Source: Acidimicrobiia bacterium | GTDB lineage: Bacteria; Actinomycetota; Acidimicrobiia; Spongiisociales; ZC4RG35 | Assembly: GCA_026002975.1 (NCBI GenBank) | Contig: BPGJ01000006.1 | Span: forward strand, 1 to 64,000 | DNA: 64,000 nucleotides | Direction: 5' to 3' | In this document: piece by piece, positions 376-18,434 of the stretch | How the letters are laid out: each line of letters starts with the position of its first letter | Numbering within the stretch: the stretch's first letter is position 1 | Position numbers and translations under genes: made by a program | The notes under the pieces: model-generated | Databases searched by the model: none | Seen by the model: the letters and a program-made list of their open reading frames with translations, nothing else | What the model was told of the DNA's origin: nothing

Positions 376-388
376 GCTGACCGGCGCC

Positions 389-1486
389 ATGACCGGAGAT
401 CCGAGCTCCGCCCCGACCACCGAGCTGGACAAGATCGTCGAGTCGATCCTGGGCAGGGACACCGACGACTTCGCCCTGGCCACCGTGGTGGGTACCCGGG
501 GGTCCACCTACCGGGGGCTGGGGGCCCGTCAGCTCGTCCGGGCCGACGGTGTGAGCGTCGGCACCGTCTCTGGTGGATGCCTCGACTCCGACCTGAGGGC
601 GGTGGCTGAACGGGTGATGGCCGGCGGCGTGGCCGAGATCGTCACCTTCGACCTGACGGCCGACGACGAGGCGATCTGGGGTTGGGGGATCGGATGCAAC
701 GGCGTGACCGAGCTTCTGGTGGAACCGGCCGCCTCCGCCCGGCCCCTCGCTCACCGCATCGTCAGGGCGAGGGCCGAGCAGAGACCCCTAGCCGTCGTCC
801 ACGACCTGTCCCGGCCCGGTCGACGCTGGTTCGTCGACCGCGCCGACTCGGATGGCCCGGACGAGATCGCACGGGCGGCGACTTCGGCCCTGGACGAGGG
901 CTGGCCCAGGGTGGAGGAGATATCGGGGGTCCGGTACATGATCGAAGTGGTGGGAGCGCCATCCAGGCTGGTCGTGTGTGGAGCCGGGCACGACGCGTCC
1001 CCGGTCGTCGAGTTCGGGGCGCGCCTCGGCTTCGAGGTGACCGTGGTCGACGATCGGCGGCAGTTCCTCACCCGGGAGAGGTTCCCCCAGGCAGCCCGGC
1101 TGGTCCACTCACGACCTTCGGCCCTCGCCGACGCGGTGGAGCTCGACAGCCGAACCTACGTGGTGTTGATGAGCCACAATTACCTCCGGGACCTGGACTA
1201 CCTGCGGGCGGTGCTCGGCACCGACGTCGCCTACGTGGCCGCCCTCGGCCCGGGTGAGAGGCTTCGTCGGCTGCTCGCCGATCTGGAGGAGCAGGGGATT
1301 CGTCCTACCGAGGCGGACCTGGCGAAACTGCACGGACCGGCGGGTCTCGACATCGGGGCCGAGGGGCCGGACGAGATCGCCTGGGCGATAATGGCAGAGA
1401 TCCTGGCTGTCCGTAGGGGGAAACCCGGCGGCAGGCTGCGGGATCGGAAAGGGCCGAAGCTGATCAGAACAGGAGGAGCCGAGTGA
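389..1486 (+). CDS. XdhC/CoxI family molybdenum hydroxylase maturation protein
   Basis: A 365-residue protein with the two usual parts. The N-terminal XdhC/CoxI domain has SGGCLDSDL near residues 61-69 and GIGCNG near 100-105. The C-terminal Rossmann domain has VVCGAGHDA near 195-203 and an acidic VVDDR strand end. XdhC proteins bind molybdenum cofactor and help sulfurate and insert it into xanthine-dehydrogenase or CO-dehydrogenase-like enzymes. The ATG at 389 was chosen because it begins the conserved domain shortly after the preceding stop; the frame extends further upstream but overlaps the previous gene. Its stop overlaps the GTG start of coxG. It is the second XdhC-type gene in tandem. 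Confidence 0.88.
   Translation: MTGDPSSAPTTELDKIVESILGRDTDDFALATVVGTRGSTYRGLGARQLVRADGVSVGTVSGGCLDSDLRAVAERVMAGGVAEIVTFDLTADDEAIWGWGIGCNGVTELLVEPAASARPLAHRIVRARAEQRPLAVVHDLSRPGRRWFVDRADSDGPDEIARAATSALDEGWPRVEEISGVRYMIEVVGAPSRLVVCGAGHDASPVVEFGARLGFEVTVVDDRRQFLTRERFPQAARLVHSRPSALADAVELDSRTYVVLMSHNYLRDLDYLRAVLGTDVAYVAALGPGERLRRLLADLEEQGIRPTEADLAKLHGPAGLDIGAEGPDEIAWAIMAEILAVRRGKPGGRLRDRKGPKLIRTGGAE
1471..1478 (+). promoter_or_regulatory. Ribosome binding site of the CoxG-like gene
   Basis: AGGAGGAG lies just inside the end of the upstream xdhC gene, five bases before the GTG at 1483. It supports that GTG start and translational coupling of the two genes. Confidence 0.7.
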
Positions 1487-2035
1487 AGATCACCCACGAG
1501 TTCACGGTGGCCAGCCCGCCCGACACGGTCTGGGCTTTCTTCCAGGACGTGCCGGCCGTCTCCCAGTGCCTTCCGGGAGCCGAGCTGTTGGAGGACAAGG
1601 GCGACGGTGTGTACTCCGGGAAGGTGTCGGTCAAGTTGGGGCCGATGACGGCCACCTTCGAGGGGGAGGCCAAGGTGACCCCCAACCCGGCCGAGAGGTT
1701 CGGGCACCATCGAAGGCAAGGGAGTGGACCGTCGGGGCGGCAGCCGCGGTCAGGTCAAGGTCGAATACCGACTCAGCCCGGAGAACGGGGGCACCCGGGT
1801 CGTGATCGACGCCGACGTGGTCCTGTCGGGAGCCGCGGCCCAGTTCGGGAGGACCGGCCTGATCAACGAGATGTCGAACCGGCTGATCGGCGAGTTCGTC
1901 GACTGTGTCGAAGGGAAGCTGACCGCCGAGACACCGGAGGAGGCCGCGCAGGTCAAGGCTGCCGAGGTTCGTGGGTTCACCCTCCTGTTGAGGAGCCTGT
2001 GGGCCTGGCTGCGGCGTCTCATCGGTCGACGCTAG
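1483..2035 (+). CDS. CoxG-like SRPBCC family protein (frameshifted)
   Basis: CoxG proteins are START/SRPBCC-fold proteins that sit in carbon-monoxide-dehydrogenase operons and help anchor or mature the enzyme at the membrane. The first frame gives MKITHEFTVASPPDTVWAFF through NPAER; the rest of the domain (GTIEGKGVD, VKVEYRL, VVIDADVVLSG, then a Leu/Trp-rich tail) is in the next frame, open to the stop at 2035. Removing one base near 1698-1703 (ttcgggc to tcgggc) joins the two into about 183 residues, normal for the family. The GTG start overlaps the xdhC stop and has a good ribosome binding site. The break may be a sequence error, because both halves are well conserved. Confidence 0.75.
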
Positions 2036-2044
2036 GACTTCCTT

Positions 2045-3733
2045 TCAACCCACCTCGACCCTCACGACCGCGGTGTCGCAGTATGTCCGGGTAGAGTCGC
2101 ATATGCGATAGGTGAAGGTGTCGACCCCGAACCAGCCCTCCGGGGCCCGGTACCTCACGTTGCCGCTGGAGCCGGCCTGAGCGCTCCCACCCTGGGTGGG
2201 GCCGGACACGATCTCCAGTGTGGTCCGATCGATCGGCCCCTCGTCGTTGGCGACCACGGAGATCACCACCACCCGGCCCGGTCTGGTGGATGCGGTGTCG
2301 TCGTGGGCCACCACCAGCGAAGGGGCGGTGGTGGTCGTGGTGCTGGTCGTCGTGGTGGTGGTGGTCGTCGTCGTTGTCGTCGTGGTGGTGGTGGTGGACG
2401 TTGTGGTGATGGACGTCGTGGTGGTGGACCTGGGGGGCGACGTCGTCGAGGTGGAGGAGTCGGACGGTGGTGTCCCGGTGGTGGATGTCACAGCCGAGGT
2501 CGGCTCCGTGGTGGAGCCGTCGGTCGTAGGGGTTCCGGCGCTCCCGGTTTCCGACGAGGAAGGCGGAGGGTCGGCTCCGGGATCCGTCTGAGACGGGGAG
2601 TCTGGACTCATTTCCGCTCCGGCGATGATGATCCGAGCGAGCTCCAGAGGCGCAACCTCGGAGGGGGTGGGAACCGCCCCTGCGACGAGCATCGAAGCCA
2701 TCAACGCGGTGGAGGTGAGAGCGGTGACGACATCCCTCCCCACCTGTGACAACCCTCTCACCCCCGGTACCTCGCCCAGGCTCGCCAAGGGACCCGCCAC
2801 CCTCTTCAGATCCCCCAAGCGAAACGTTCATCAAGGCCCTCACCACCTTGGGATCGAACTGGGTTCCGGCGTGGCTGAGCAGCTCCAACCTCGCCTCCGC
2901 GGGGGCGAGTCTCCGCCGGTAGGTCCTCCCCGCGGTCATGACGTCGTAGGCGTCGGCGACCGCCACGATCCGTGCGCCGAGGGCGATGTCCTCGCCCGAG
3001 CAGTCCGTGGGGGTAGCCCGAACCGTCCCACCGTTCGTGATGGTGCTCCACCGTCTTGGCCCACGGTCCCAGCCATCCCTCGATCGGTCTGATCAACTCC
3101 ATACCGGCTTCGGGGTGTGTGCGGACCAGCTCCCATTCCGCATCGTCGAGACTCGTGTTCTTGGACAGGATCTCGGAGGGGATGGACAGCTTGCCGACGT
3201 CGTGGAGGAGAGCCGCCCATTGGAGACGATCCCGGTCGTCGGCGTCCAGACCCATCTCTCGGGCGATCAGGTCGGCATAGGCGCGCGTTCGCTCGGAATG
3301 GCCCCGAGTTCGAGGGTCGTGGCGGGAGAGCGCCGCCGCCAGGGCGAGGATCAGCTCGGCAGCCTCGCCCGTCTCCACCTCTTCGCCCTCTCCGCATCCG
3401 ATCCACCCGATCCCGGAGCCGGCTGACCGACCCGGCCCGAAGCGCCACCTTGAACCGAGACGGCACCCGGTCGGGAAACGTGAGGGTCAGCTCGAACAGC
3501 GCAGCGAGGGGTAAGGCCCGTCTAACCCATCGGTCCACCAGCGTCGCCACCGTGGAGGCGACGACGATCACCAGCAACCACCAGCCCGCCACCTCCCATA
3601 CGTTGGTGGGAGGTCGAAGGAGCCGAGCCAGACCCGTGCCCGCCGCCATGCCCACCAGGATCGGCAGGACGAAGACCACCACCCGGACGGCGAACGCCGT
3701 CCGAGGACGGGCGCGCCAGCGGGTCGTCTGCAT
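2045..3733 (-). CDS. Membrane HD-GYP phosphodiesterase with Thr-rich stalk and Ig-like ectodomain (three frameshifts)
   Basis: In coding order: two N-terminal membrane helices (FAVRVVVFVLPILVGMAAG and WLLVIVVASTVATLV); an HD-GYP domain with HDVGK, HHERWDGSGYP and VADAYDVMTAGRTYR; NVSLG followed by DLKRVAGPL; a third membrane helix (TSTALMASMLVAGAVP); a long Ser/Thr/Pro region with a run of ~17 Thr; and a C-terminal beta domain of bacterial Ig/cadherin-like type (DDTASTRPG ... DTFTYRICDS). HD-GYP domains hydrolyse cyclic di-GMP. Three hydrophobic helices place the HD-GYP inside and the stalk and Ig domain outside. The gene is split over four frames; one extra base near 3389-3400, in the run at 2994-2996 and in the C5 run at 2812-2816 explains all the breaks. 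The 257-residue C-terminal frame (from 2818) would otherwise be called a separate secreted protein. Confidence 0.7.
2324..2432 (-). repeat. Low-complexity threonine-codon tract
   Basis: Nearly pure ACC/ACG codons on the minus strand encode the poly-Thr stalk of the HD-GYP protein. The plus strand reads as a spurious poly-Val frame. Such tracts are prone to slippage and copy-number change. Confidence 0.85.
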
Positions 3734-4497: not shown

Positions 4498-7215
4498 TCA
4501 ACGCTGCCAGGGTGGCGCCACCTCCGGGTCCAAGCCGTATCGGCGAACCGCGTCCTCCACCGCCGACGAGTCGATCTTCCCCTCCCTGCACAGAGACGAC
4601 AGCACCGCCAGGACGATGTGGGACGCGTCCGTCTCGAAGAAGCGGCGAAGCCTGGCCCGGGTGTCGGAGCGGCCGAAGCCGTCGGTGCCCAGCGGCACGA
4701 ACGTGCCGGGGACCCACCTGGCCACCTGCTCGGGCACCATCCGCATGAAGTCGGTCACCGCCACCTTCGGTCCGGGGGCCTCTTCCAGGCGGCGGGTGAC
4801 GAGAGGAACACGCGGCGGTCGGTCGGGGTGGAGCAGGTTCCACCGGTCGGCCTCGAGCGCCTCTTCCCGTAGTGCCTTGTAGGAGGTCACCGACCAGAGC
4901 TCGGCCCCGACTCCGTAGTGTTCGGCGAGCTCGTCCCGAGCATCACGCGCCGCCAGGAAAGCCGTTCCCGAGAACAGGATGGTTGCCCCGAGACGGCCCT
5001 CCGGAGCCGCTTCCCATCGGTACATGCCTTCGACGATCTGGGCGTCGACCCCATCCGGTTTCGGGGGCTGCAGGTAGTTCTCGTTGTACAAGGTCAGGTA
5101 GTAGTACACGTCCTCGTCTTCGAGGTACATGCGTCTTATGCCGTCCCGAACGATCACCGCCATCTCATAGGCGAACGCGGGGTCGTAGGCACGGCACGTC
5201 GGAACCACCGAGGCCAACACGTGGGAGTGGCCGTCCTGGTGCTGCAGGCCCTCGCCTTGCAAGGTGGTTCGGCCCGCGGTGGCTCCCAGCAGGAAGCCCC
5301 GGGCACGGGCGTCCGCCGCCGCCCAGAGCAGGTCCCCCACCCGCTGGAACCCGAACATGGAGTAGAAGATGTAGAAGGGGACCATCGGGACTCCCCGGGT
5401 GGCGTACGAGGTGGCTGCTGCGGTCCACGAGGCGGTGGACCCGGCTTCGGTGATCCCCTCCTCGAGGATCTGCCCGTCCTGGGACTCGATATAGGCGAGC
5501 AGCATCTTGGCGTCGACCGGCTCGTAGAGCTGACCCTGCGAGGCGTAGATCTTGAGCTCCCTGAAGAGAGAGTCCATGCCGAAGGTCCTGGCCTCGTCGG
5601 GAACGATGGGAACCACACGCGGCCCGAACTCGGGGAGGCGGCAGAGGTTGCGCAGGAGCCGCACGAAAGCCGTGGTGGTCGACGCCGGGACCTTCTCCGA
5701 GCCACGGTAGAGGTCTTCGAAGGCTTCGTCGCTCGGCGGTGCGAGCGGGTTCCTGATCCGGACGACCCGGGCGGGCAGGGACCCGTGGAGGCGCTTCCGG
5801 CACTCCATCATGTACTGGTATTCGGGGGAGTCGACCGGAGGCCGGTAGTAGGGCGGATCTCGATCCCCCTCCAGGGACTCGGCGGGGATCTCCTCCTCGA
5901 GGTGGAGTCGGTTCCGCAGGTCGAGGAGTTGGCGGTTGGTGAGTTCCTTGATCTGATGGGTCGCGTTTCGGCCCTCGACGTCGGGACCCAGGGTCCAACC
6001 CTTGATGGTCTTGGCGAGGATGACGGTGGGGCCGGGCATCTCCGTCGCCGCCTTGTAGGCGGCGTAGACCTTCCTCGGATCGTGGCCACCCCGACGGAGG
6101 TTCCAGATCTCCTCGTCCGACATGTGCTCCACCAGCTTCAACGCCCGTGGGTCCTTGCCGAAGAAGTGCTTCCGCACGTAGGCCCCGTCCTCGGCCTTGT
6201 AACGCTGGTACTCGCCGTCGACCGTGTTGTTCATGATCTCCACCAGGACACCTTCGTGGTCGGCGGCGAGGAGGGGATCCCAATCCGATCCCCAGATGAC
6301 CTTGATCACGTTCCAGCCTGCTCCCCGGAAGATCGCCTCCAGCTCCTGGATGATCTTCCCGTTCCCCCTGACGGGGCCGTCCAGTCGCTGGAGGTTGCAG
6401 TTGACCACCCAGATCAGGTTGTCCAGACCTTCCCGGGCGGCCAGCGAGATCGAACCGAGGGTTTCGGGCTCGTCGCATTCCCCGTCGCCGAGGAAGCACC
6501 ACACCCGGGACTGGGAGGTGTCGTCGATCCCCCGGTTGTGCAGGTACTTGTAGAACCGGGCCTGGTAGATCGAGTTGATGGGTCCGAGGCCCATGGACAC
6601 CGTGGGGTATTCCCAGAAGTCGGGCATCAGACGGGGATGTGGGTACGAAGAGAGGCCGCCACCCCCGATCTCCATGCGGAAGTTGTCGAGGTGACGCTCG
6701 TCGAGTCTCCGTTCGATGAAGGCTCGCGCGTAGATGCCGGGAGCGGCGTGTCCCTGAACGTAGACGGCGTCGCCCGGGAACCCGTCGTCCTTGCCCCGGA
6801 AGAAGTGGTTGAAGCCCACCTCGTAGAGGAGCGCCGACGAAGCGAAGGTGGAGAGGTGGCCTCCGATGCCCTTCTCGTGGTGGTTCGCCTTGATCACCAT
6901 CACCGCGGCGTTCCACCGGATGAATCGGCGGATCCGCTTCTCCATCCATTCGTCTCCCGGGTACTCGGGCTCTTCCTCCGGGGGGATCGTGTTGATGTAG
7001 GGGGTGCTGACCGTGCCCGGCACCCCGAGGGCGAGTTGATGGGCCCGCTCCATCAGCTTGGCCAGCAGGAAGCGGGCCCGCCCCGGCCCGTCATGTCGTA
7101 TCACCTCGTCGAGCGACTCGAGCCACTCGCGGGTCTCCACCGGATCTATGTCGTGGAGCTGGTGGACGAACCCGTCGATGTAGGCGTTGACCTTCCGGGG
7201 TGCAAGATCGGTCAT
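4498..7215 (-). CDS. aceE: Pyruvate dehydrogenase E1 component, homodimeric type
   Basis: A 905-residue protein, the normal size for AceE. It uses thiamine diphosphate to decarboxylate pyruvate and pass the acetyl group to the E2 lipoyl domain, feeding acetyl-CoA synthesis. The thiamine-diphosphate motif GDGECDEPE followed by NLIWVVNCNLQRLDG is intact, as are EKRIRRFIRWNAA near the N-terminus and the C-terminal VTDFMR...FVPLGTDGFG region. The ATG at 7215 lies seven bases after a TAGGCT -10 element, so the transcript may be leaderless. The gene stands alone: no E2 or E3 genes are adjacent, as in many actinobacteria. Confidence 0.96.
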   Translation of the reverse strand: MTDLAPRKVNAYIDGFVHQLHDIDPVETREWLESLDEVIRHDGPGRARFLLAKLMERAHQLALGVPGTVSTPYINTIPPEEEPEYPGDEWMEKRIRRFIRWNAAVMVIKANHHEKGIGGHLSTFASSALLYEVGFNHFFRGKDDGFPGDAVYVQGHAAPGIYARAFIERRLDERHLDNFRMEIGGGGLSSYPHPRLMPDFWEYPTVSMGLGPINSIYQARFYKYLHNRGIDDTSQSRVWCFLGDGECDEPETLGSISLAAREGLDNLIWVVNCNLQRLDGPVRGNGKIIQELEAIFRGAGWNVIKVIWGSDWDPLLAADHEGVLVEIMNNTVDGEYQRYKAEDGAYVRKHFFGKDPRALKLVEHMSDEEIWNLRRGGHDPRKVYAAYKAATEMPGPTVILAKTIKGWTLGPDVEGRNATHQIKELTNRQLLDLRNRLHLEEEIPAESLEGDRDPPYYRPPVDSPEYQYMMECRKRLHGSLPARVVRIRNPLAPPSDEAFEDLYRGSEKVPASTTTAFVRLLRNLCRLPEFGPRVVPIVPDEARTFGMDSLFRELKIYASQGQLYEPVDAKMLLAYIESQDGQILEEGITEAGSTASWTAAATSYATRGVPMVPFYIFYSMFGFQRVGDLLWAAADARARGFLLGATAGRTTLQGEGLQHQDGHSHVLASVVPTCRAYDPAFAYEMAVIVRDGIRRMYLEDEDVYYYLTLYNENYLQPPKPDGVDAQIVEGMYRWEAAPEGRLGATILFSGTAFLAARDARDELAEHYGVGAELWSVTSYKALREEALEADRWNLLHPDRPPRVPLVTRRLEEAPGPKVAVTDFMRMVPEQVARWVPGTFVPLGTDGFGRSDTRARLRRFFETDASHIVLAVLSSLCREGKIDSSAVEDAVRRYGLDPEVAPPWQR

Positions 7216-7277: not shown

Positions 7278-8648
7278 ATGCGGGCACTACTGGTCTCCAC
7301 CTACGAGATGGGTCATCAACCCCTCGGGGTGGCGTCAGCCGCCGCGGCGTTGACCGAGGCAGGCCACGACGTCCGGGCGCTGGACCTCCAGGTGGAACCC
7401 TACAGGGAGGATCTGGTCGACTGGGCGGACGCGGTGGCAGTTTCGGTGCCCATGCACACCGCAATGCGGTTGGCGGTGCCACTCGCCGAGAAGATCCGGG
7501 AGCGTCGACCCGACCTCCCCATCGCCTTCTACGGGCTCTACGCGGCGGTGGCCCGGGATAGAACCGTGGCCCGTCTTATCGACAAGGCGATAGTGGGCGA
7601 GTACCTGCCAGGTCTGGTGTCCTGGTTCGCCGATCTCGACCGTGGGGTGGAGGTCGACCTCACCGTGCAGCAGTTCGGGGTGCCTCGCCGAGACCTGCTC
7701 CCTCCCCTCGACCGGTACAGCCACCTCCAGATCGGGGACGAGCATCGTCTGGCGGGCTACGTCGAGGCCAGCCATGGATGCCGCCACCGGTGTCGCCACT
7801 GTCCGGTCCCGGCGGTCTACGACGGACTGTTCCGGATCGTAGGTGTGGAGCCGGTGGTGAGCGACGTGGCCCAGCTCGTCGACATGGGAGCCCGCCACAT
7901 CAGCTTCGGCGATCCCGACTTCCTCAACGCGCCGGTCTACGCAGCCAAGGTGATCGACGCCGTCCACCGTACCTTTCCCGACCTCACCTTCGACGTGACC
8001 GTGAAGGTGGAGCACCTACTCGCCCACCCCGGGTTACTCGAGACGTTGGCCGCCAGCAACGTGTTGTTCGTCGTTTCCGCCTTCGAGACCGTGTCGGACC
8101 ACATCCTCCGGCTCCTCGACAAGGGCCACACGGTCGCCGACATGGCCCGAGCGGTGGAGGAGTGTCGGCGGGTGGGCATCGACATCAGGGCGTCGTGGCT
8201 GCCGTTCACCCCATGGACCCGTCCCGACGATCTCCTTGGGGTGTTCCGGTTCCTCGCCGACCACGACCTGGCCGCCACCACCGACCCGGTCCAGCTGTCG
8301 ATCCGTCTCCTGGTTCCCGACGGGTCGCTCCTCCTCGACCTGCCCGACATGGTTCCCTACCTGGGCGACTACGACCCGGTGGGTCTCACCTACCGATGGG
8401 AGTACGCCCATCCGGAGCTGGATCGGGTGCAGGCGACGTTGGCCGAGCTGGCAGCGGAGGCGGCCGATCGGGGAGAGGACCCGGGAACGACCCTTACCGA
8501 GATGTGGGCTCGGAGCGCCGAGCTCCTCGACCTTCCCGCCTCCGAGGTGATCCCGGCGGGTGCCACGTCGGGGCGACCCCGGATGACCGAACCCTGGTTC
8601 TGCTGAGCGGAACCCACCGGGCGCCAGGTCGGCGCCCTCGGCGACTAG
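7278..8648 (+). CDS. CUAEP-tail radical SAM selenoprotein (TGA at 8604-8606 read as selenocysteine)
   Basis: The N-terminal ~140 residues resemble a cobalamin-binding domain (MRALLVSTYEMGHQPLG, ALDLQVE, VSVPMHTAM). A radical SAM domain follows, with cysteines 168, 172 and 175 in CRHRCRHC for the 4Fe-4S cluster and a later ISFGDPDFLN strand. The apparent end is TEPWFC-TGA, but the frame continues Ala-Glu-Pro-Thr-Gly and closes at TAG 8646-8648, giving 456 residues with selenocysteine at 443. A family known as CUAEP/CCAEP-tail radical SAM (seleno)proteins has exactly this tail, with Sec or Cys in the variable place. A SECIS-like hairpin follows the TGA at the correct distance. The final CTAG also contains the plsB stop on the other strand. 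The reaction catalysed is unknown. Conventional gene calling would end this gene at 8606. Confidence 0.88.
8604..8641 (+). promoter_or_regulatory. Bacterial SECIS element (selenocysteine insertion)
   Basis: The TGA at 8604-8606 is followed after 19 bases by the loop AGGTC (8626-8630), closed by a perfect stem GGGCGCC (8619-8625) / GGCGCCC (8631-8637). CC at 8617-8618 can also pair with GG at 8640-8641 across a small bulge. The E. coli formate dehydrogenase SECIS has a similar spacing and an AGGUCU apical loop; the bulged U and loop guanines are what SelB contacts. There is no T-tract, which argues against an intrinsic terminator. Confidence 0.8.
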
Positions 8649-10885
8649 ACCGACACGTTCTCGAGTTCGGCGATCCGTCGGCTCCGCCCCACCAGGTCCT
8701 GGACCTCCTCCAGGAACGCCTGCCGGCTCTCCGGGGTGTCCAACCTCCGGTTCTCGACCAGACGCAACACGGTTTGGAACAGCGGCTTGGAGACGGCTTC
8801 GGGGCTCCGGAGCCGACCCTCGTCGATGGCTCGGCGGCCCCGTTCCAGGCAGGCGGCGAGGAACTCCCGCTCGTCGGCGGGTCCGTCGACCGCGAGCTGT
8901 TCGGCCACCACCAGATAGGCCTCCAGGAACGGGAGGAGCGTCCAATGGGCACGGAGGGGACGGCACGACTCGAGCAGCTTCCGCCGGTCGGTCGCCACCA
9001 GGTCTTCCCAGTGGGGGTCGATCCGCTCCAGTTCGACTCGGATCCGCTCCAGGAACCGGGCCTTGGCGGGGAAGAAGAACTCGAACTTGAGCAGGTCCCG
9101 GATCGCCAGGGCCTCGTCGAACGGGTCGCCGCTCCCGGCCAGGGCCAGTTCGGTGATGGCCCCGGGAACGAAATGATGGACCACCGAGTTCCGGTAGTAG
9201 GAGGCCTCGATCGCCTGTCTACGGCTCAGCCTGACGTGTTGGTCCTCCAAGGTGACGGTCCCGTGGCGAGCCAGCTGGGCGAGCAGGGAAGCCACCCGCT
9301 CGGGTCGGTGGAGCTCTAGGGGCTCGGTGACCGGGAAACCCATCTCGTCCACGTACCGGCACAGCTCGGTGCACCGTGCCGTGACCCGGGACACGGTGGG
9401 TTCCGGATCGGCCAGGGTGGCGGCGGTGACCAGGGACGTGGGAGTTATCGGCGTCACCTCCGAGATCCGGTACATCACCTCGAAGGCGAGCTTCTGCAGG
9501 TCGAGGGTGACCTCGTCACCCTCCCCTGACAGTTCGGCCACGTCCCGACCCACCGACACCGGCTCGGCGAACCGTATGTGGATGTTCCCGTAGCCGATCC
9601 GAAGCGAGCGGATCGCCGACACCGCCCAGGCGAAACTCTCGGGACGCTTCTCCCCTCCCAGGGCTTCGTGGGCGTAGTCGTGCACGTCCTGGATCTGGTC
9701 GTAGGTGATGGCGGTCGGGATCAGATAGAGGTCGTCGGCCTTGCCCCTCCGCACCGAGTCGACCACCCAGCTCAGCAGACCGAACCGAGGGGGGAGCAGC
9801 TTCCCGGTGCGGGACCTGCCCCCCTCCATGTACCACTCCAGGGGAAACCGCTTCTCCAACAGATAGTCCAGGTAGGAGCGGAGGACGAACTTGTACAGAG
9901 GGTTGTCCTTGAAGCTCCGTCGTATGAAGAAAGCACCGGTGCGGCGTATCAGCGGTCCCACCGGCCAGAAGTTCATGTTGATCCCGGCCGCGGTGTGGTT
10001 CGGCGGCAGGTCGTTCTGCCACAGGACGTATTGGAGGCTGAGACGATCCATCATCGAGCGGTGGGAGGGGAGGAACGCCAGCGGATGACTCTCGCCCAGC
10101 GCGGTCACCTTCCGCAGCTCGTCGGGGTCGTACAGGATGGCCCCATAGCCGAGCCGGTACAGCCATTGGATGGCGGTGGCCACCAGGTCGATCACGAAAG
10201 TGCTGTGGGACGCCGCGATCTCCCTCAGGTAGTAACGGGCCCGGGCGAACGCCAACTCGGGGGGCATTCCCTGCTCCCCGGCGATCCGCACCACACCGTC
10301 TCGGAACTCGGCCCTGTCCAGGATCTCTTCCCGGACGAAACGGGGGACCTTGTACCGGTTGCCCCGGAGCGCACGTTCGGCCCTCTCCAGGGCCAGATGG
10401 GCCCGCCGGGTGACGAAGGTGACCAGACTCACCGCCTCGGGTGAGGTGCGCCAGGCCTCCAACAGCTCGTCGGCCCGGGCTCCCTGTCCGACGACGATCC
10501 GAACCCGGTCGGGGTGGAGACGGACGATCAGGTGTTGGCGGACGGCGTTCGGGTCCCGGGGATCCCCGAGTTTCAGCAGGTCGACCCACGAGGCGGTGCG
10601 CATCCCGTGCCGCTCGGGTGGAAACCAGGCCAGGCGGACCGGCACGACCAACGGATCGTCGCCTCTCTGGAGTCGTGCAGCGAGCCGCGGGTCGGTGCGC
10701 CGCCGGCGGAGGCGGTTGGGTCGGCGGGACGGAAGCAGATCGATGGTCTCCACCCCACCACCCCCCACCCTCTCGGCCCATCCCACCAGGATGTCCTGCT
10801 CCAAGCGGGAGGCCGCGTCGACCAGCACCACCAGAGGCCTGGTTGGGTCGAGAGGGGGTTCGTCGGGGAGGACGGGAGCGGCCAC
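8645..10885 (-). CDS. plsB: Glycerol-3-phosphate 1-O-acyltransferase (PlsB type)
   Basis: A 746-residue protein of the large membrane-associated PlsB family, which acylates position 1 of glycerol-3-phosphate to begin phospholipid synthesis. The acyltransferase block has FLPSHRSMMDRLSL (the HX4D motif), GINMNFWPVGPLIRRTGAFF, then YMEGGRSRTGKLLPP and LIPTAITYDQI, in the family order. The C-terminal third is helical and variable. The start is GTG at 10885; dtd begins 30 bases away in the opposite direction. Its stop shares the CTAG at 8645-8648 with the read-through stop of the radical SAM gene. The window also encodes plsX, so two routes into acyl transfer are present. Confidence 0.92.
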   Translation of the reverse strand: MAAPVLPDEPPLDPTRPLVVLVDAASRLEQDILVGWAERVGGGGVETIDLLPSRRPNRLRRRRTDPRLAARLQRGDDPLVVPVRLAWFPPERHGMRTASWVDLLKLGDPRDPNAVRQHLIVRLHPDRVRIVVGQGARADELLEAWRTSPEAVSLVTFVTRRAHLALERAERALRGNRYKVPRFVREEILDRAEFRDGVVRIAGEQGMPPELAFARARYYLREIAASHSTFVIDLVATAIQWLYRLGYGAILYDPDELRKVTALGESHPLAFLPSHRSMMDRLSLQYVLWQNDLPPNHTAAGINMNFWPVGPLIRRTGAFFIRRSFKDNPLYKFVLRSYLDYLLEKRFPLEWYMEGGRSRTGKLLPPRFGLLSWVVDSVRRGKADDLYLIPTAITYDQIQDVHDYAHEALGGEKRPESFAWAVSAIRSLRIGYGNIHIRFAEPVSVGRDVAELSGEGDEVTLDLQKLAFEVMYRISEVTPITPTSLVTAATLADPEPTVSRVTARCTELCRYVDEMGFPVTEPLELHRPERVASLLAQLARHGTVTLEDQHVRLSRRQAIEASYYRNSVVHHFVPGAITELALAGSGDPFDEALAIRDLLKFEFFFPAKARFLERIRVELERIDPHWEDLVATDRRKLLESCRPLRAHWTLLPFLEAYLVVAEQLAVDGPADEREFLAACLERGRRAIDEGRLRSPEAVSKPLFQTVLRLVENRRLDTPESRQAFLEEVQDLVGRSRRIAELENVSV

Positions 10886-10915
10886 GTCGAAAAGGATGCC
10901 AGAATCGGCCGGGCC

Positions 10916-11371
10916 GTGCGTGCGGTAGTCCAGAGGGTTTCCAGGGCCCAGGTACGGGTCGACGGAGTGGCCGTCTCGAGCATCGGTCCCGGCCTCTGCG
11001 CCTTCGTCGGGGTGGAAAAGGGTGACACCGAAGCCGACGTGGCAGCCCTGGCCGACAAGCTCGCCGGCCTCAGGGTGTTCAGCGACCCGGAAGGTCGGAT
11101 GAACCTCGACATCTACGCGGTGGGCGGGAGCCTCCTCGTAGTGAGTCAGTTCACCCTCGCCGCCGACCTGCGGCGAGGCCGGCGCCCGTCCTTCGACCGG
11201 GCGGCACCCCCCGAAGAAGCCGAGCGTCTCCTCCAGATCCTGGTCGACCGGCTACGGTCCGAAGGGCTCTCCGTGGCCACCGGCGTGTTCGGCGCCGTCA
11301 TGGAAGTCGATCTGGTCAACCAGGGGCCGGTGACCTTCGTCATAGCCACGTCTTCGGGTCGGGTGGTGTGA
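10916..11371 (+). CDS. dtd: D-aminoacyl-tRNA deacylase
   Basis: A 151-residue protein, normal for Dtd. It hydrolyses D-aminoacyl-tRNAs (and glycyl-tRNA-Ala) to prevent D-residue misincorporation. It has MRAVVQRVSRAQVRVDG at the start, SQFTLAAD for the catalytic site, and NQGPVTFVI near the C-terminus, corresponding to the cross-subunit Gly-Pro motif. The GTG at 10916 was chosen because it begins the conserved RAVVQRV strand; the open frame extends upstream over plsB without conservation. The gene ends three bases before the convergent adnB stop. Confidence 0.92.
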   Translation: MRAVVQRVSRAQVRVDGVAVSSIGPGLCAFVGVEKGDTEADVAALADKLAGLRVFSDPEGRMNLDIYAVGGSLLVVSQFTLAADLRRGRRPSFDRAAPPEEAERLLQILVDRLRSEGLSVATGVFGAVMEVDLVNQGPVTFVIATSSGRVV

Positions 11372-11374
11372 GCC

Positions 11375-14300
11375 TCATTCCGCCGACAGATACTCGGCTC
11401 CCGGGGGACAGAACCGGACGAAGTCGCAGTTGCGGCAAGCCGGCGACGGGGCCGGATCGAACCGGCCCTCGGTGATTCCGCCCACCAGGTCTTCGATCTC
11501 CCTTCGTGCTTCTTCCAACCACTCGGCATCGGCTACGTAGGTGACCTCCTCACAGGTGTTCCCTCCCAGGTAGGCGAAGGTCAGCCTGAGCCGGTCGGGT
11601 CTGGGGCGGCCGAATTCGACGTGCCGGATGGCCAGGCCGTAGACCTGGAGCTGAACCGGAGGAACCGGACCGTCCGGTTTGCGGCCCGACTTGAAGTCGA
11701 CCACCTCCCAATGGTCTCCCCGGTCGTACACGGCGTCGATCCTTCCCCGGATCACCACATCCGGTTCCAGGACGAGATGGAAGGGAGCTTCGACCAGGAG
11801 AGGCGGCTGCTCCGAGAAACGGGAGGCGAGGAAGTTCCGGAAGGGATCGGCTCCGGTGGTCTGTGCGCCGTCCCACTCCACCGCGTCGTACAGCTCCGGA
11901 TCCAACTCTTCCAGGGGGACCCTGCCTCGCAGGTGCAACTCGATGCGTCGATGGATCTGCACTCCCCGGGTAGCGGCCCGGCCGCCACGACGAGGCAGAC
12001 GGTCCACCTCGGTCCAGTAGAAGCGCAGGGGGCAGGTCCGGTAGGTGACCAGGCCTGTCGCCGACATCTCCATTCGGGTCGCCGGCTCCACGGTACGGGG
12101 CACCGAGATGTCGAGCACGAGCTGCCGGTGGTCTTCCACCGCGGTGTGGTACTCGGCGACCACCCCTCGCTCCTCGGCCACCCGTCGGGGTAGCTCGGGA
12201 TCTTCCACCACCTCTTCGAGGAAACGGTTGGGGTCTTCGCCCAGGAGAGGATCCTCCGCTGCTGTCGATGGGGTGCCCACCACCATCACCTCGGGTCGGG
12301 GCGGCGGCTCTCCGGGCGGATCCCCGATCGTCGAACCCACACCGGCTGCGTGCTCCCACAGCTCGGAGGGCGGAACCGGGTTCTGGTTGGGCTCCGGGTG
12401 TCCGTACCAATGGGCACCGGTGACGTACAGCCGCTCTTTGGCCCGTGTGACGGCCACATACGCCACACGCCACTCCTGCCGGATCCGGTTCTGCTGCAAC
12501 CATTCCCGGAGGTCGGCGGACTCGGGCGGTCCCGGATCGAGCCTGAACTCGAAGGGCAGGCTCTCCGGTCGGGAGGTCGGATCGTCGTAGGCTCCTCCCC
12601 GGGTGGGGAAGTTCCCCCGGTAGACGGCGGGCAGGAACACCACGGGCCACTCGAGGCCCTTGGCCCGGTGGACGGTTATCAGCGTCACCGCGTCGGCGCC
12701 TGACAACCGGGCGGTGTCGAGCTCCTCGGCGTGCTCCTGGTCGAGCGCTTCCAGGTGGGCGAGGAACGCCCGAAGGGTGGGTCGTCCATCCAAGGGACTC
12801 CACGACTCGGCCAGGTCGAGGAATCTGTGGAGGTTGAGTCGAGCGGACAGCGCCGAGTTCGGCTCCATCGCTTCGATCTCGTCCCAAGCCCCGATTCGAT
12901 CCAGGATCGTGCGGCAGAGCTCGACCAGCGAAAGCTGCTGGGCGGAGGCGACCAGCTCTCCGTATTCGGATCGGAACTCTTCGAGGCGGGCCCGTGCCTC
13001 GTCGGAGAGGCCTTCGAATCCCTCCAAGCGATCCACCACCTCCGCGACTCCGATGGGGACCTCTCGATCCGGGTCGGCCGGGTCGACGCTCAGCCGCACC
13101 TGTCGGCTGATCACCGCCAAGTCGGCCAAACCCAGCCGATACCTGGGCCCGAGGAGGATGCGGGCCGCCGCCGGGCCGTCGTCGGGCCGTTCGAGGAGAC
13201 GAAGCCAGGCATGCAGATCCACCACCTCCGGCACGCCCAGGAGCCCACCCAGGTTGGCGACCTCGAAGGGGATGTCGTGGACGGCCAACGCCTGATGCAC
13301 GAGGAGCATGTCCTTGTTCTTGCGGAACAGGATCGCCATGTCCCGCCATGCGGTTCCCGTCTCGTGGAGATCACCGATCGTCGATGCCAGCCATTCCGCC
13401 TCCTGGACTGCGGTGTCGAACCAGGCGGTCTCGACCGACCCGGGGAGGGCGTCGGGTCGGGGGCGCAACCGAACCGACCCGGACAGCTCCTCCACCAGCC
13501 GGTTGGCCAGTTCCAGGATCTTCCAGCCGGACCGCCGGTTGACCGTCAGTTCCAGGGTGGGCGCCGGTCCCTCGGGGTTGGCGAAGTGCTGGGGAAAGTC
13601 GGCGAAGTTGGCTGGGGACGCTCCCCGCCACTCGTAGATGGTCTGATACGGGTCGCCCACCGCGGTGACCGGCACCCTCCCGGCGAACAACCGGCGAAGG
13701 AGCTCCCTCTGGGCGGGATTGGTGTCCTGGTACTCGTCGAGCAGGACCGCCCGATAACGGGCCGCGATCTTCTCGGCCACGTCCGGATGGTCCACCACCA
13801 GGCGATGCGCCTTGGTGATCAGATCCCCATAGTCGGCCACCCCCATCCGGCGTTTCTCCTCCTCGTAGGCCGAGAGGAGTTCCAGCATCTCCTTTCGAGC
13901 GGGCCAAGGCTCCTCCTCCGTCGCGGCGCCCAACACGGTGACGGGATCGACCAGGTTGTCGGCCAGTCGACCGCCCAGGGTCAGGATCCGATCCACCGCT
14001 GCGGGGATCGTCGGGTCGAAGGAGTCCCAGTCGAACCGGTCGAGGAGGTCCATGAGCAGGCGGTGGGCATAGGCGGGGGTGATGATCGGGGTGTCCCGCT
14101 CGATACCGACCAAGACACCGAACTCGCGCAGGATCGAGGCGGCGAAACCGTGATAGGTGTGGACCTCGACCTCCCTGCCGACTTCGATCCGACCACCCAA
14201 CATCGCCCGGATCCGGTCGGCCAGCTCCTCGGCCGCCTTGTTGGTGAAGGTGAGGCCGAGGATCGCTTCGGGATCGACCCCGTGCCGGGTCACCAGCTCC

Positions 14301-14410
14301 ACCACCCTCCAGGCGAGGGTCGAGGTCTTGCCGGTACCGGCGGTCGCGGTGACCCGCAGCGACACGAGGGGCGACTCCACGACCCGGAGCTGTTCTCTGC
14401 TCGGTCTCAC
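11375..14410 (-). CDS. adnB: AdnB-like ATP-dependent helicase-nuclease subunit
   Basis: A 1011-residue UvrD-like helicase with a C-terminal RecB-family nuclease. Helicase motifs in order: Walker A AGTGKTS (residues 24-30), LTFTNKAAEE, LLDEYQDTNPAQ (Walker B), GDPYQTIYEWRGA, TVHRAKGLEW and VAVTRAKERLYV. The nuclease has VVDFKSGRK, plus a TYRTCPLRFYW cysteine and CRNCDFVRFC, the four-cysteine pattern of an Fe-S staple. Mycobacterial AdnAB resects double-strand breaks and replaces RecBCD/AddAB. The GTG at 14410 overlaps the adnA stop (GTGA); a long upstream extension in the same frame is antisense-like noise inside adnA. Confidence 0.87.
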   Translation of the reverse strand: MRPSREQLRVVESPLVSLRVTATAGTGKTSTLAWRVVELVTRHGVDPEAILGLTFTNKAAEELADRIRAMLGGRIEVGREVEVHTYHGFAASILREFGVLVGIERDTPIITPAYAHRLLMDLLDRFDWDSFDPTIPAAVDRILTLGGRLADNLVDPVTVLGAATEEEPWPARKEMLELLSAYEEEKRRMGVADYGDLITKAHRLVVDHPDVAEKIAARYRAVLLDEYQDTNPAQRELLRRLFAGRVPVTAVGDPYQTIYEWRGASPANFADFPQHFANPEGPAPTLELTVNRRSGWKILELANRLVEELSGSVRLRPRPDALPGSVETAWFDTAVQEAEWLASTIGDLHETGTAWRDMAILFRKNKDMLLVHQALAVHDIPFEVANLGGLLGVPEVVDLHAWLRLLERPDDGPAAARILLGPRYRLGLADLAVISRQVRLSVDPADPDREVPIGVAEVVDRLEGFEGLSDEARARLEEFRSEYGELVASAQQLSLVELCRTILDRIGAWDEIEAMEPNSALSARLNLHRFLDLAESWSPLDGRPTLRAFLAHLEALDQEHAEELDTARLSGADAVTLITVHRAKGLEWPVVFLPAVYRGNFPTRGGAYDDPTSRPESLPFEFRLDPGPPESADLREWLQQNRIRQEWRVAYVAVTRAKERLYVTGAHWYGHPEPNQNPVPPSELWEHAAGVGSTIGDPPGEPPPRPEVMVVGTPSTAAEDPLLGEDPNRFLEEVVEDPELPRRVAEERGVVAEYHTAVEDHRQLVLDISVPRTVEPATRMEMSATGLVTYRTCPLRFYWTEVDRLPRRGGRAATRGVQIHRRIELHLRGRVPLEELDPELYDAVEWDGAQTTGADPFRNFLASRFSEQPPLLVEAPFHLVLEPDVVIRGRIDAVYDRGDHWEVVDFKSGRKPDGPVPPVQLQVYGLAIRHVEFGRPRPDRLRLTFAYLGGNTCEEVTYVADAEWLEEARREIEDLVGGITEGRFDPAPSPACRNCDFVRFCPPGAEYLSAE

Positions 14411-17337
14411 CGCTGGAACGCCTCCTTCCCCTCGGGCCACAGCGGACACACCAGCCGCACCGAGCATCGCCGACAGTGGCTCCCCATTCGGGGTGTCCAC
14501 TCCTCGTCCAGGATCCCCCTCGCCGCCTCGGTGAGCCGTTCCTCGACTTCGTCGAGACGCCCAGGGTCGAAGGGCCGCCGCCACCTGCCGCGCGCTCTGG
14601 GGATCCACATCTCGGCGACGACCTCGGAGTCGAACTCCCTCGCCACCGCCGCGACGTAGAAGCCGAGCTGCAGCGACGCCTCCACGTCCTCGTACCTGGG
14701 AGCGGTGGAGCTGGTCTTGTAGTCGACCACCCTGACCCTGCCGTCCGGGAGACGGTCGATCCGGTCGACCCGACCGACCCAGCGTATGCCACCCAGCTCG
14801 AAGGCCACGGGGTGTTCGACCGCGATGGTGGTGGATTCGTCTTCGGGCCACCCTTCGTAGAGCCGCTGGAGGAGGTCCACCGCCTTGCGACGCCACACCC
14901 GGTTCATCGTGTCCGACCCGAAGTCGGCTCCCTCCCCCCAGACTCGGTCGAGGGCGGCCAGCGCGGTCGGCAGGTCCGAGTGGGGACGTCCCTCGCTCAG
15001 AGCCCGACGATCCGCCTCCTCCAAGACGGAGTGGACCAGCCTGCCGAAGAGGGCCCAAGGTCCGCTCTCGCCTCCCAATCCGAGGCGTCGCTCCAACACG
15101 TAGCGGCGGGGACACTCGAGATATGCCTCGGCCTGACTGGGGGAGAGGATCGGCGTCCCGTCGAGTACCCCCCGGTCGGGACCAGGCCGGCGGATCCCGG
15201 CGAACCGTCTGGGGTCCCACAGCGGGACGGGAGGGTGGGCCAGCACCTGGGCCGCGGCGAGACGGTGCCCGGCCGGTCGACGGGGATCGGCGAGTAGGCG
15301 GCGCAGGCGGGCCTGGGCCTGTCGGGCGGTGAGCGGAGGTCCCTCGTACCGGGGAGGAGGGGGGACGGAGCCGACGCCGTCCACTCCCGCGGCGGCGAGG
15401 AGGAAACGGCTCGGCCTGTCTTCGCCCTCGTCGATGCCCGAGGCGGTCGCGGTCCACACCACACGACGTCGAGCCCGAGTCATCGCCAGGTAGCCCAGCC
15501 TCGCCTCCTCGGCCAGCCTGATCCCCATGAGTTCCCGGCGGTCCGCGAGGTCGAGGAGGTGCGTGTCCAACACGCCCACCCCCTTTCCAAGGTCCGGGAA
15601 CACACCCTCGGTCGCATCGGCGATGAAGACCACGTCGAATTCGAGACCCTTCGATTGGTGCATCGTCGTGAGGGTGACCCGGTCGTCCCCGGCGTCCCGG
15701 TAAGAGAGCAGGGGGGTGGGTTCGAAGTCCTGGTCCCCGACCATCTCCCAGTAGTCCCGAAGGGTCACACGGGGATCCCGCTCGCGTTGACGTTCCAGGG
15801 TCTGGGAGAACGCGGTCCATGCCGCCCGATGAGACCTGAAGGCCGGGTCGGTGGCGAGCCGCCCCAGTGCGGGGATCGTCTCCCAAAACACCCAGAACCC
15901 GTCGGCCGCGGGCGACTCCGTGGCCCATCCGGGGTCGGCTAGGAGCTCGGCCACCGCCGATCCCTCGGATGAATGCTCTCTCAGCAGGTCCGTCCAGTCA
16001 CGGCCCGCCCGACGCATCCGGAGCAATTGACGCTCCTCGGCGACGGGCAGCCGAAAGAGCTCGCCGAGCAGCAGCCGCCGCATGGCCTGGTCGGCGACCT
16101 CTGGGTCCTCGGCCGTGGCAGCCTCGACCAGGTCGAACAGCATCCTGACCGCCGGATGGTCGACCAGTCGGCGGTGACCGGCGTCGTGAGCCAACCCCCG
16201 ACGCTGGAAAGCCCGTGATAGTTCGTTGAGGAGCCGCCGCTTGGACCGCACCAGAACCCCGATTCGACGCAGAGGCACGCCATCTCCCAGGTGGAGGCGT
16301 TCGATCTCGGCGGCGATCCAGTCGGCCTCGGCGGAGCCCTGGTCGAACAGGTAGGCCTCCACGGTCCCGGAGTGCTCGGCGGGACGAGGCGAAGGAGAAC
16401 CCCCGGGCAGGTGGTGGGTGGCGAGGAGGCGCCGAGCCCCGTCGAGGATCGTCGCCGGAACCCGGAAACTGACGGCCAGCTGCCACCAGCGGGTGTCGGG
16501 ACCGAAGATCTGGGGAAACTCGGCGACGTTCTCGACCCGGGCACCTCTGAACGAGTAGGTCGATTGGGCTGGTTCTCCGGCCGCGGTCAGGTTGTGGCTG
16601 GGTCTGGTGGCCTGGTGGATGAGCGCCACCTGGGCGGGCGACAGGTCCTGGTACTCGTCGACCAGCACGAATGGGTGATCCTGGCTCACGCTGCGACGCA
16701 CGGTCTCGTCCGAGAGGAGGTCGAGGGCGTCGAGCAGGAGGGTCGAGTAGTCGATCTTTCCGAGCTCGCCGAGGGCCGCCCGGTACCGCTCCAGGAAGCC
16801 GGGGAGCGCGCCCCACAGGGGGTGTCGCCGGGCACGCTCGGCCAGTCGGGTCGAGTCGATCCGGCGTTCGGCGCAGCGGAGTAGGAAGTCGGTGACGTCC
16901 CGGGCGAAGGTGGGGGAGCCCAGCAGGGGGCGGAGCGCAGGCGGCCAAGTTCGGGGATCCTCTTCGTGCAGGAGACGGGACACCAGGGCGAGCTGCTCGG
17001 GCCCGGTCAGCAATGCCGGAGGCCCGCCCGGTCGGTGCGCCTCCAGGAGACGGTATGCGAAGGAGTGAACCGTCGACGCCGCCACCGAGGTGAGGGAACG
17101 ACCCAGCCGGTCCAGGATGCGCCGCCTCAGCGCATCCGCGGCCCGCCTCGAGAAGGCCAACACCAGCACCTCGTCGGCCCGGTCGACGACGTGCTCGATC
17201 AGGTGGGTTGCCCGCCGGACGAGGAATTCGGTCTTGCCCGATCCGGGCCCCCCGGTGACGATCTGCGGTCCCTCCACCTCCACGATCGCGCGATCCCAGT
17301 CGGGAGGTTCCACCACGGCGACGATCGGGCGGTTCAC
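14407..17337 (-). CDS. adnA: AdnA-like ATP-dependent helicase-nuclease subunit
   Basis: A 976-residue partner of the next gene with the same layout. Helicase: GGPGSGKT (29-36), VLAFSRRAADALRRR, FVLVDEYQDLSPAQ, GEPAQSTYSFRGA, TTMHQSKGLEFDVVF, LAMTRARRRVVW. Nuclease: VRVVDYKTSS, with YLECPRRYVLE and CRRCSVRLVC supplying an Fe-S cysteine set. In mycobacteria the two subunits form a heterodimer with a motor and a nuclease in each. Here the Walker A of this subunit is complete, so its motor is not obviously lost. The gene lies first and overlaps adnB by four bases. The start is GTG at 17337. Confidence 0.85.
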   Translation of the reverse strand: MNRPIVAVVEPPDWDRAIVEVEGPQIVTGGPGSGKTEFLVRRATHLIEHVVDRADEVLVLAFSRRAADALRRRILDRLGRSLTSVAASTVHSFAYRLLEAHRPGGPPALLTGPEQLALVSRLLHEEDPRTWPPALRPLLGSPTFARDVTDFLLRCAERRIDSTRLAERARRHPLWGALPGFLERYRAALGELGKIDYSTLLLDALDLLSDETVRRSVSQDHPFVLVDEYQDLSPAQVALIHQATRPSHNLTAAGEPAQSTYSFRGARVENVAEFPQIFGPDTRWWQLAVSFRVPATILDGARRLLATHHLPGGSPSPRPAEHSGTVEAYLFDQGSAEADWIAAEIERLHLGDGVPLRRIGVLVRSKRRLLNELSRAFQRRGLAHDAGHRRLVDHPAVRMLFDLVEAATAEDPEVADQAMRRLLLGELFRLPVAEERQLLRMRRAGRDWTDLLREHSSEGSAVAELLADPGWATESPAADGFWVFWETIPALGRLATDPAFRSHRAAWTAFSQTLERQRERDPRVTLRDYWEMVGDQDFEPTPLLSYRDAGDDRVTLTTMHQSKGLEFDVVFIADATEGVFPDLGKGVGVLDTHLLDLADRRELMGIRLAEEARLGYLAMTRARRRVVWTATASGIDEGEDRPSRFLLAAAGVDGVGSVPPPPRYEGPPLTARQAQARLRRLLADPRRPAGHRLAAAQVLAHPPVPLWDPRRFAGIRRPGPDRGVLDGTPILSPSQAEAYLECPRRYVLERRLGLGGESGPWALFGRLVHSVLEEADRRALSEGRPHSDLPTALAALDRVWGEGADFGSDTMNRVWRRKAVDLLQRLYEGWPEDESTTIAVEHPVAFELGGIRWVGRVDRIDRLPDGRVRVVDYKTSSTAPRYEDVEASLQLGFYVAAVAREFDSEVVAEMWIPRARGRWRRPFDPGRLDEVEERLTEAARGILDEEWTPRMGSHCRRCSVRLVCPLWPEGKEAFQR

Positions 17338-18428: not shown

Positions 18429-18434
18429 GAGGCA

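What the first reader, a model, noticed from the sequence alone, without database searches (positions are those of the whole stretch)
8590..8648. Radical SAM gene carries an in-frame UGA that very probably encodes selenocysteine, with its own SECIS
Sequence: the frame ends FC-TGA and continues Ala-Glu-Pro, exactly the C-U-A-E-P tail of a named radical SAM (seleno)protein family. A perfect 7-bp GC stem with an AGGTC loop begins 12 bases after the TGA, with the loop about 19 bases after it, close to the E. coli fdhF SECIS, whose loop is AGGUCU. The extended frame closes at TAG 8646, and the same CTAG holds the plsB stop on the other strand. Known: bacterial SECIS hairpins sit just after the UGA inside the coding frame. 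Inference: this organism makes selenocysteine, so selA, selB, selC and selD should exist elsewhere. Standard annotation truncates this protein and hides the Cys-Sec pair, the likely redox centre.
Basis: partly seen in the sequence, partly recalled or inferred. Interest (0 to 1): 0.92.

Follow-up and report, generated by a model that had tools for sequence, protein, structure and literature searches.

The report
Selenocysteine-tailed radical SAM enzyme
A bacterial enzyme gene looks as if it ends early but very probably reads its stop signal as selenocysteine, giving a reactive sulfur-selenium tail; the family already has a database name, its job is unknown, and a partner gene suggests it makes an unusual amino acid.

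Summary
Confirmed. Frame 7278-8648 (+) has one in-frame TGA (8604-8606) followed by AEPTGRQVGALGD and TAG. It belongs to NCBIfam NF040546, 'CUAEP/CCAEP-tail radical SAM (seleno)protein' (510.9 bits with the tail, 490.6 without, cut-off 500). In 79 of 79 readable homologous loci that codon is UGA (28) or Cys (51). A 7-bp hairpin 12 nt downstream fits the published bacterial SECIS model and covaries; the model is met by 35 of 42 Sec-type and 10 of 55 Cys-type genes. The genome has selA, selB, tRNA-Sec and a selD with its own UGA and a frame change. So: a selenoprotein, in a family NCBI already models. Added here: an ATP-grasp L-amino-acid-ligase-like gene lies in 51 of 80 loci and occurs in 23 of 24 carrier genomes against 10 of 372 others. 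Nearest characterised relative: ArsL (arsinothricin). Best guess, untested: the Cys-Sec tail holds a thiol-seeking substrate for radical chemistry that yields an unusual amino acid, which the ligase couples.

The parts
7278..8648 (+). CUAEP-tail radical SAM selenoprotein gene (456 residues with Sec; start ATG 7278 by family alignment, ATG 7269 possible)
   Evidence: NCBIfam NF040546 510.9 bits with TGA read through; alignment with 19 homologues
7290..7601 (+). B12-binding-fold domain (residues 5-108)
   Evidence: Pfam PF02310, 45 bits, cut-off 32.1; cobalamin binding not tested
7767..8183 (+). radical SAM domain (residues 164-302)
   Evidence: Pfam PF04055, 51.4 bits, cut-off 29.5
7779..7802 (+). 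CxxxCxxC motif for the SAM-binding [4Fe-4S] cluster (C168, C172, C175)
   Evidence: invariant in the 53 rows of alignment A4
8601..8606 (+). Cys442-Sec443 pair; TGA 8604-8606 read as selenocysteine
   Evidence: codon 443 is TGA, TGC or TGT in 79 of 79 readable loci of 80
8607..8645 (+). conserved tail AEPTGRQVGALGD, reached only through the UGA
   Evidence: E445, P446 and Q450 invariant in A4; the tail lifts the family score over the cut-off
8619..8637 (+). bacterial SECIS hairpin: 7 bp, loop AGGTC, 19 nt from the UGA
   Evidence: fits the published model, -17.0 kcal/mol; covariation over 42 Sec-type genes
4498..7215 (-). aceE (pyruvate dehydrogenase E1), divergent neighbour
   Evidence: Pfam PDH_E1_M and transketolase domains; aceE found in 16 of 80 homologous loci
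8645..10885 (-). plsB-like glycerol-3-phosphate acyltransferase, convergent neighbour sharing the CTAG
   Evidence: Pfam GPAT_C; ORF coordinates

Best explanation
The UGA at 8604 is decoded as selenocysteine by the cell's own SelA/SelB/tRNA-Sec/SelD system, steered by the hairpin at 8619-8637. The product is a 456-residue B12-fold radical SAM enzyme with a C-terminal Cys442-Sec443 pair (probability about 0.97; the confidence below is for this part). How it works is inferred (about 0.4 as a whole): the CxxxCxxC cluster cleaves SAM; the tail folds back towards the active site, and its Cys-Sec pair, the only other invariant thiol/selenol positions, binds or activates the substrate, probably a thiol-seeking (soft) species as in the relative ArsL; the radical chemistry yields an unusual amino acid, and the partner ATP-grasp enzyme (L-amino-acid-ligase-like) joins it to another molecule. 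The Cys-Cys members would do the same job without selenium.
For: Sec: in 79 of 79 readable loci (of the best 80 of 566 relatives) codon 443 is TGA (28), TGC (39) or TGT (12). Own genome: selB (329 bits, cut-off 242) next to selA (445, cut-off 268), tRNA-Sec with anticodon TCA (74.7, cut-off 47), selD. selA found in 13 of 14 other genomes with the UGA form (one of the 13 a fragment under cut-off) against 1 of 6 with the Cys form. SECIS: 87.8% of cells paired and 44 double changes against 13.5 in shuffles; mean pairs 6.14 of 7 in 42 Sec rows, 2.84 in 55 Cys rows, synonymous null 4.44 with maximum 4.90 in 200 draws; published model passed by 35 of 42 Sec and 10 of 55 Cys rows. Among 18 loci fetched later, the 12 less than 95% alike to earlier tails give 6, 7, 7, 7 pairs in 4 Sec rows and 1 to 3 in 8 Cys rows. 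At least 13 Sec/Cys switches on a tree of 82 rows, 7 forced by well-supported branches. Mechanism: C168, C172, C175, C442 and position 443 are the only invariant Cys/Sec positions in 53 rows; second-best family is ArsL, 275 bits over residues 4-385; ATP-grasp in 51 of 80 loci and co-occurrence 23 of 24 against 10 of 372; tail blocks 431-440 and 441-450 modelled with mean pLDDT 85 and 82.
Against: No peptide or selenium data. 7 of 42 Sec-type genes fail my implementation of the published SECIS model and 10 of 55 Cys-type genes pass it. On phylogenetically independent pairs the hairpin follows Sec in 4.3 of 7 and never the other way (median p 0.125); with my fixed stem register only 1.8 of 7 (p 0.5). 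One Sec genome (G393, 78% complete) shows no selA and one Cys genome (G118) has it. The own selD changes frame in this assembly, so a working SelD is not shown. For the chemistry: no arsenic family is among the 25 commonest Pfam families of 83 other neighbours (47 rarer families not shown); the ArsL passages that I saw speak of only three conserved cysteines (PMC8552651), so the parallel with ArsL's tail rests on the model name rSAM_RCCLKC; no coordinates were at hand to measure whether the tail reaches the cluster; co-occurrence is not corrected for kinship.
Confidence: 0.95

Rival explanations
1. The UGA is an ordinary stop; the protein ends at Cys442 and the frame beyond is chance or a decayed end.
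For: A 442-residue product still scores 490.6 bits to the family; single-sequence shuffle z-scores of the hairpin are modest; the own selD is frame-changed.
Against: The codons after the UGA encode the same AEP-x-x-Q tail as in Cys members; the codon is UGA or Cys in 79 of 79 readable loci; the hairpin covaries; selA, selB and tRNA-Sec are present.
Confidence: 0.02
2. UGA is read as tryptophan, or by leaky readthrough, rather than as Sec.
For: The extended frame is open.
Against: None of the 79 readable loci has TGG there; the tRNA with anticodon TCA is tRNA-Sec by ARAGORN and by the Rfam model; the hairpin would be unexplained.
Confidence: 0.01
3. The Cys-Sec pair is a redox (selenenylsulfide) couple that reduces an intermediate or protects the enzyme, rather than a binding site for a soft element.
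For: Vicinal Cys-Sec pairs are redox centres in other selenoproteins (recalled, from no call); Cys replaces Sec repeatedly; a flavin-reductase-like domain occurs in 3 of 83 scanned neighbours.
Against: No thioredoxin-like family is among the 25 commonest families of those neighbours (47 not shown); the closest characterised relative ArsL acts on arsenite (PMC8552651, passages). Neither is decisive.
Confidence: 0.35
4. The enzyme serves pyruvate dehydrogenase or lipoate metabolism (for instance repair or modification of the lipoyl group), which would explain its place beside aceE, lipA, lipB, aceF and lpd and near an NfuA-like Fe-S carrier.
For: aceE lies in 16 of 80 loci and in the window, in two arrangements: divergent upstream in 7 and in the window, codirectional downstream in 9 Chloroflexi loci; NfuA-like gene in 49 of 80.
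Against: lipA/lipB linkage is confined to 9 Chloroflexi loci, which are kin; 64 of 80 loci show no aceE (many are cut short); the NfuA-like gene mostly accompanies the ATP-grasp gene, also in the own genome.
Confidence: 0.15

Closest known systems
NCBIfam NF040546 (rSAM_CUAEP), CUAEP/CCAEP-tail radical SAM (seleno)protein
   Same: Whole length, over cut-off, C-U-A-E-P tail, radical SAM and B12-binding-fold domains.
   Different: Nothing essential: this is a member. The model's title names no function.
ArsL, arsinothricin biosynthesis radical SAM protein (NF040542)
   Same: 275 bits over residues 4-385; the model name rSAM_RCCLKC suggests a cysteine-rich motif as well.
   Different: Below that family's cut-off (450 bits). 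ArsL works with ArsM and ArsQ (PMC8552651); this one goes with an ATP-grasp ligase. arsM and arsQ were not searched for by name.
AprD4, OxsB, MgmA, TsrM (B12-fold radical SAM structures)
   Same: Fold: AprD4 6fd2 TM 0.67, OxsB 5ul3 TM 0.66; profile hits 9ccb, 6fd2, 5ul2.
   Different: 14-18% identity in the rows of these four; the tables say nothing of a comparable tail.
Other radical SAM selenoproteins in the 2026 review (TIGR04167; TrsS, NF045646)
   Same: Radical SAM proteins with predicted Sec (PMC13188914, passages).
   Different: Different families; NF040546 and CCAEP do not occur in that review's main text, CUAEP in no paper of the library.

Membership tests
NF040546 rSAM_CUAEP | score over the curated cut-off of 500 bits | tested here: met
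   510.9 bits with the Sec tail; 503.9 in the genome search
NF040546 rSAM_CUAEP | C-terminal C-[U/C]-A-E-P motif | tested here: met
   FCUAEP at 8598-8615
Bacterial selenoprotein | in-frame UGA aligned to Cys in homologues | tested here: met
   28 UGA and 51 Cys codons in 79 readable loci
Bacterial selenoprotein | SECIS hairpin just after the UGA fitting the published model | tested here: met
   spacing 19, loop 5 nt with G at position 2, 7 bp, -17.0 kcal/mol; model from a figure legend of PMC13188914
Bacterial selenoprotein | selA, selB, tRNA-Sec and selD in the genome | tested here: met
   selD is split by a frame change in the assembly
Bacterial selenoprotein | selenium in the protein | not testable with these tools
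   needs mass spectrometry or 75Se labelling
ArsL (NF040542) | score over the curated cut-off of 450 bits | tested here: not met
   275.1 bits
ArsL (NF040542) | transfer of the 3-amino-3-carboxypropyl group of SAM to As(III) | not testable with these tools
   enzymology needed
Radical SAM superfamily | CxxxCxxC cluster motif | tested here: met
   C168, C172, C175 invariant in 53 rows; PF04055 51.4 bits
Cobalamin-dependent radical SAM | bound cobalamin | not testable with these tools
   PF02310 matches, which says nothing certain about cobalamin

The most novel reading that the evidence does not exclude
A widespread, perhaps undescribed pathway of environmental bacteria: a radical SAM enzyme with a Cys-Sec (or Cys-Cys) tail builds an unusual amino acid, probably by forming a carbon bond to a soft element such as arsenic or selenium, and a dedicated ATP-grasp L-amino-acid ligase couples it into a dipeptide or similar, with an NfuA-like protein supplying Fe-S clusters; in some lineages it is tied to pyruvate dehydrogenase and lipoate.
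Probability: 0.25. Interest if true: 0.85.

Novelty: new member of a known kind. Interest (0 to 1): 0.5.

Why it matters
It gives comparative evidence that a family of radical SAM selenoproteins, named by NCBI but not found by name in the papers searched, is real and has switched between Sec and Cys many times, a natural test of what selenium adds to a radical enzyme. The recurring ATP-grasp partner turns a radical SAM protein of unknown function into a two-gene pathway that can be expressed and assayed. Ordinary gene calling, which stops at the UGA, would cut off the residues that probably matter most.

Tried and rejected
Arsenic gene cluster around the gene: not seen. ABC transporters lead the Pfam tally of 83 neighbours; these were 83 of 98 proteins that a script listed out of 385 ORFs of fitting size near the gene, 15 left out because I judged them near-copies. 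Only the 25 commonest of 72 families are shown, so rarer arsenic genes are not excluded. Anti-phage role: no PADLOC match for the enzyme or the own ATP-grasp. Sec-type formate dehydrogenase in the own genome: no match over the cut-off, none with an internal stop; I made no wider search for other selenoproteins. Rfam over the window at gathering scores: only a tRNA. The greedy gene calling missed genes (13 loci with aceE against 16 by tblastn) and was replaced. My first hairpin measure (fixed 5-nt loop) does badly in the independent-pair test, partly because L119, L121 and L139 pair with a 4-nt loop and L042 is shifted; both results are given. I first took the aceE linkage for three arrangements; on rechecking L097 there are two. 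I first called the 18 later loci held-out; 3 of 18 repeat earlier tails exactly and 6 of 18 are at least 95% alike, so only 12 are counted as new.

Rows left out: L097 of the 80 loci (no readable tail); identical tails L070, L086, L094 (the two genome collections overlap); L051 and L052 (gene cut by the contig end) and L053 (FCC-AAP variant) from the tail sets; G046, G070 and G080 from the Sec/Cys comparison (G080, a Cys variant, has no selA; the other two cannot be typed; G046 has selA, G070 not). The G032 second copy (TGA) was not fetched as a locus. A4 holds the window and 52 of the 77 references listed. The tree has 82 rows with position 443 masked; it is the quick tree, the careful search did not finish.

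Full report
What is there. The + frame from ATG 7278 runs to a TGA at 8604-8606, continues with 13 codons (AEPTGRQVGALGD) and closes at TAG 8646-8648. The stop of the plsB-like gene on the other strand shares the CTAG. The protein has a B12-binding-fold domain and a radical SAM domain and matches NCBIfam NF040546, 'CUAEP/CCAEP-tail radical SAM (seleno)protein', with 510.9 bits when the TGA is read as Sec (cut-off 500) and 490.6 bits when it ends at the TGA.

Is the UGA selenocysteine? In 79 the tail could be read with any codon allowed at position 443; it is TGA in 28, TGC in 39, TGT in 12. A separate search of 396 genomes of the phylum gave 20 genomes over the cut-off, the own one included; of the 21 loci with the motif 15, this one included, have TGA and 6 Cys. 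The two collections overlap in part (3 identical tails).

Machinery: the window's own genome is a 2.33-Mb assembly in 20 contigs, 84.6% complete. It has selB and selA side by side on contig 7, tRNA-Sec with anticodon TCA on contig 1 and selD on contig 1. SelD carries an in-frame TGA in SHGAG-U-ACK, where I recall the catalytic Cys/Sec to lie, and changes frame in mid-gene in this assembly. Of 14 other genomes with the UGA form, 13 have selA (one a fragment); of 6 with the Cys form, 1 (Fisher p 0.002, not corrected for kinship).

SECIS: the hairpin at 8619-8637 has 7 G-C pairs, loop AGGTC, 19 nt from the UGA, -17.0 kcal/mol. It meets the published bacterial model: loop 3-9 nt, upper stem 4-16 bp, G in the first two loop positions, spacing 16-37 nt, energy at most -7.5 (PMC13188914, passages). 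Over 42 Sec-type genes 87.8% of cells pair, with 44 double changes against 13.5 in shuffles, falling to 57.8% or less when the register is slid. Sec rows average 6.14 of 7 pairs, Cys rows 2.84, synonymous null 4.44. The published model passes 35 of 42 Sec and 10 of 55 Cys rows. Of 18 loci fetched afterwards from the same family and order, 6 are near-copies of earlier ones; the other 12 give 6, 7, 7, 7 pairs in 4 Sec rows and 1 to 3 in 8 Cys rows.

History: on a quick tree of 82 proteins with the position masked, Sec and Cys change at least 13 times, 7 of them forced by well-supported branches. Independent switches point the expected way or do not differ, never the other way, but are too few for significance (4.3 for, 0 against, of 7; 1.8 for with my fixed register). 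L138, a Cys-type gene paired with the Sec-type L119 in the tree, still passes the SECIS model, as a recently lost Sec would.

What it does. The only Cys/Sec positions invariant in 53 aligned sequences are the three of the SAM cluster motif (C168, C172, C175) and the tail pair C442-U443. An AlphaFold model (mean pLDDT 93.7) gives residues 431-440 and 441-450 means of 85 and 82, after a weak stretch of 59 at 421-430, so the tail may be docked, but I had no coordinates to see where. Nearest solved folds include AprD4, OxsB, MgmA and TsrM. The next-best family after its own is ArsL, at 275 bits, the enzyme predicted to put the 3-amino-3-carboxypropyl group of SAM on arsenite (PMC8552651, passages).

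Neighbours. In the 80 loci, tblastn with marker proteins finds an ATP-grasp gene in 51, an NfuA-like gene in 49, a DUF169 gene in 20, aceE in 16, lipA and lipB in 9 each, selA in 1 and selB in none; many loci are cut short by contig ends. The ATP-grasp lies just upstream in the same direction in 39, further upstream in 1, downstream in the same direction in 7 and downstream on the other strand in 4, so the link was probably remade more than once. Its C-terminal domain is LAL_C2, L-amino acid ligase. In the window's genome it is not linked: it sits on contig 17 beside the NfuA-like gene. In the phylum sample of 396 genomes, searched twice (the handles agree where listed), 23 of 24 genomes that carry the CUAEP gene also carry the ATP-grasp (E at most 1e-60), against 10 of 372 others (not corrected for kinship). 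The 24 include the own genome and four genomes below the CUAEP cut-off; the exception is G021. I take this as the strongest functional clue. aceE beside the gene is shared by the window and 16 of 80 loci in two arrangements, divergent (7) and codirectional downstream (9); in 8 Chloroflexi loci the row is ATP-grasp, CUAEP gene, lipB, lipA, aceE, aceF, lpd.

Reading. Shown by comparison: the family, the UGA/Cys exchange, the SECIS, the machinery, the partner gene. Inferred: the tail enters the active site; it binds a soft or thiol-reactive substrate; the product is an amino acid that the ligase couples. Against arsenic in particular: no arsenic family among the commonest neighbours, and the ArsL passages mention three conserved cysteines only.

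Novelty. The protein is a new member of a family that NCBI already models and names as a (seleno)protein. 'CUAEP', 'CCAEP' and 'NF040546' occur in none of the 5.39 million open papers searched; ATP-grasp, radical SAM and selenoprotein occur together in none. Two papers by Haft and co-workers that might treat the family (PMC12013261, PMC9879109; titles seen in a reference list) are not held, so I cannot say it is unpublished.

Noticed in passing
G000:C1:239504-240413 (-), locus L142: selD carries an in-frame TGA in SHGAG-U-ACK (probably Sec) and changes reading frame in mid-gene in this assembly, from sequencing error or decay.
   Followed up: partly
G000:C17:21059-22934, locus L141: ATP-grasp L-amino-acid-ligase-like gene and NfuA-like gene, a divergent pair: unlinked counterparts of the neighbours seen in homologous loci.
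   Followed up: yes
L138, match 10001-11404: Thermogemmatispora aurantia has the Cys form with a hairpin that still passes the SECIS model: a possible fossil of a lost Sec codon.
   Followed up: partly
L066, L067, L069, L073, L081, L087, L099, L101: Chloroflexi loci with ATP-grasp, CUAEP gene, lipB, lipA, aceE, aceF and lpd in one row.
   Followed up: partly
20 of 80 loci, e.g. L094 and L096 directly downstream: DUF169 (COG2043) genes recur in the loci of the CUAEP gene in varied arrangements.
   Followed up: no
window 11375-17337 (-): Two large ORFs with UvrD helicase plus PD-(D/E)XK nuclease domains, overlapping in the ORF list, and a third ORF with a PD-(D/E)XK domain at 17565-19067.
   Followed up: no
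window 38-2094 (+): XdhC/CoxI-like and CoxG-like genes, suggesting a molybdenum hydroxylase or CO dehydrogenase locus at the window's edge.
   Followed up: no
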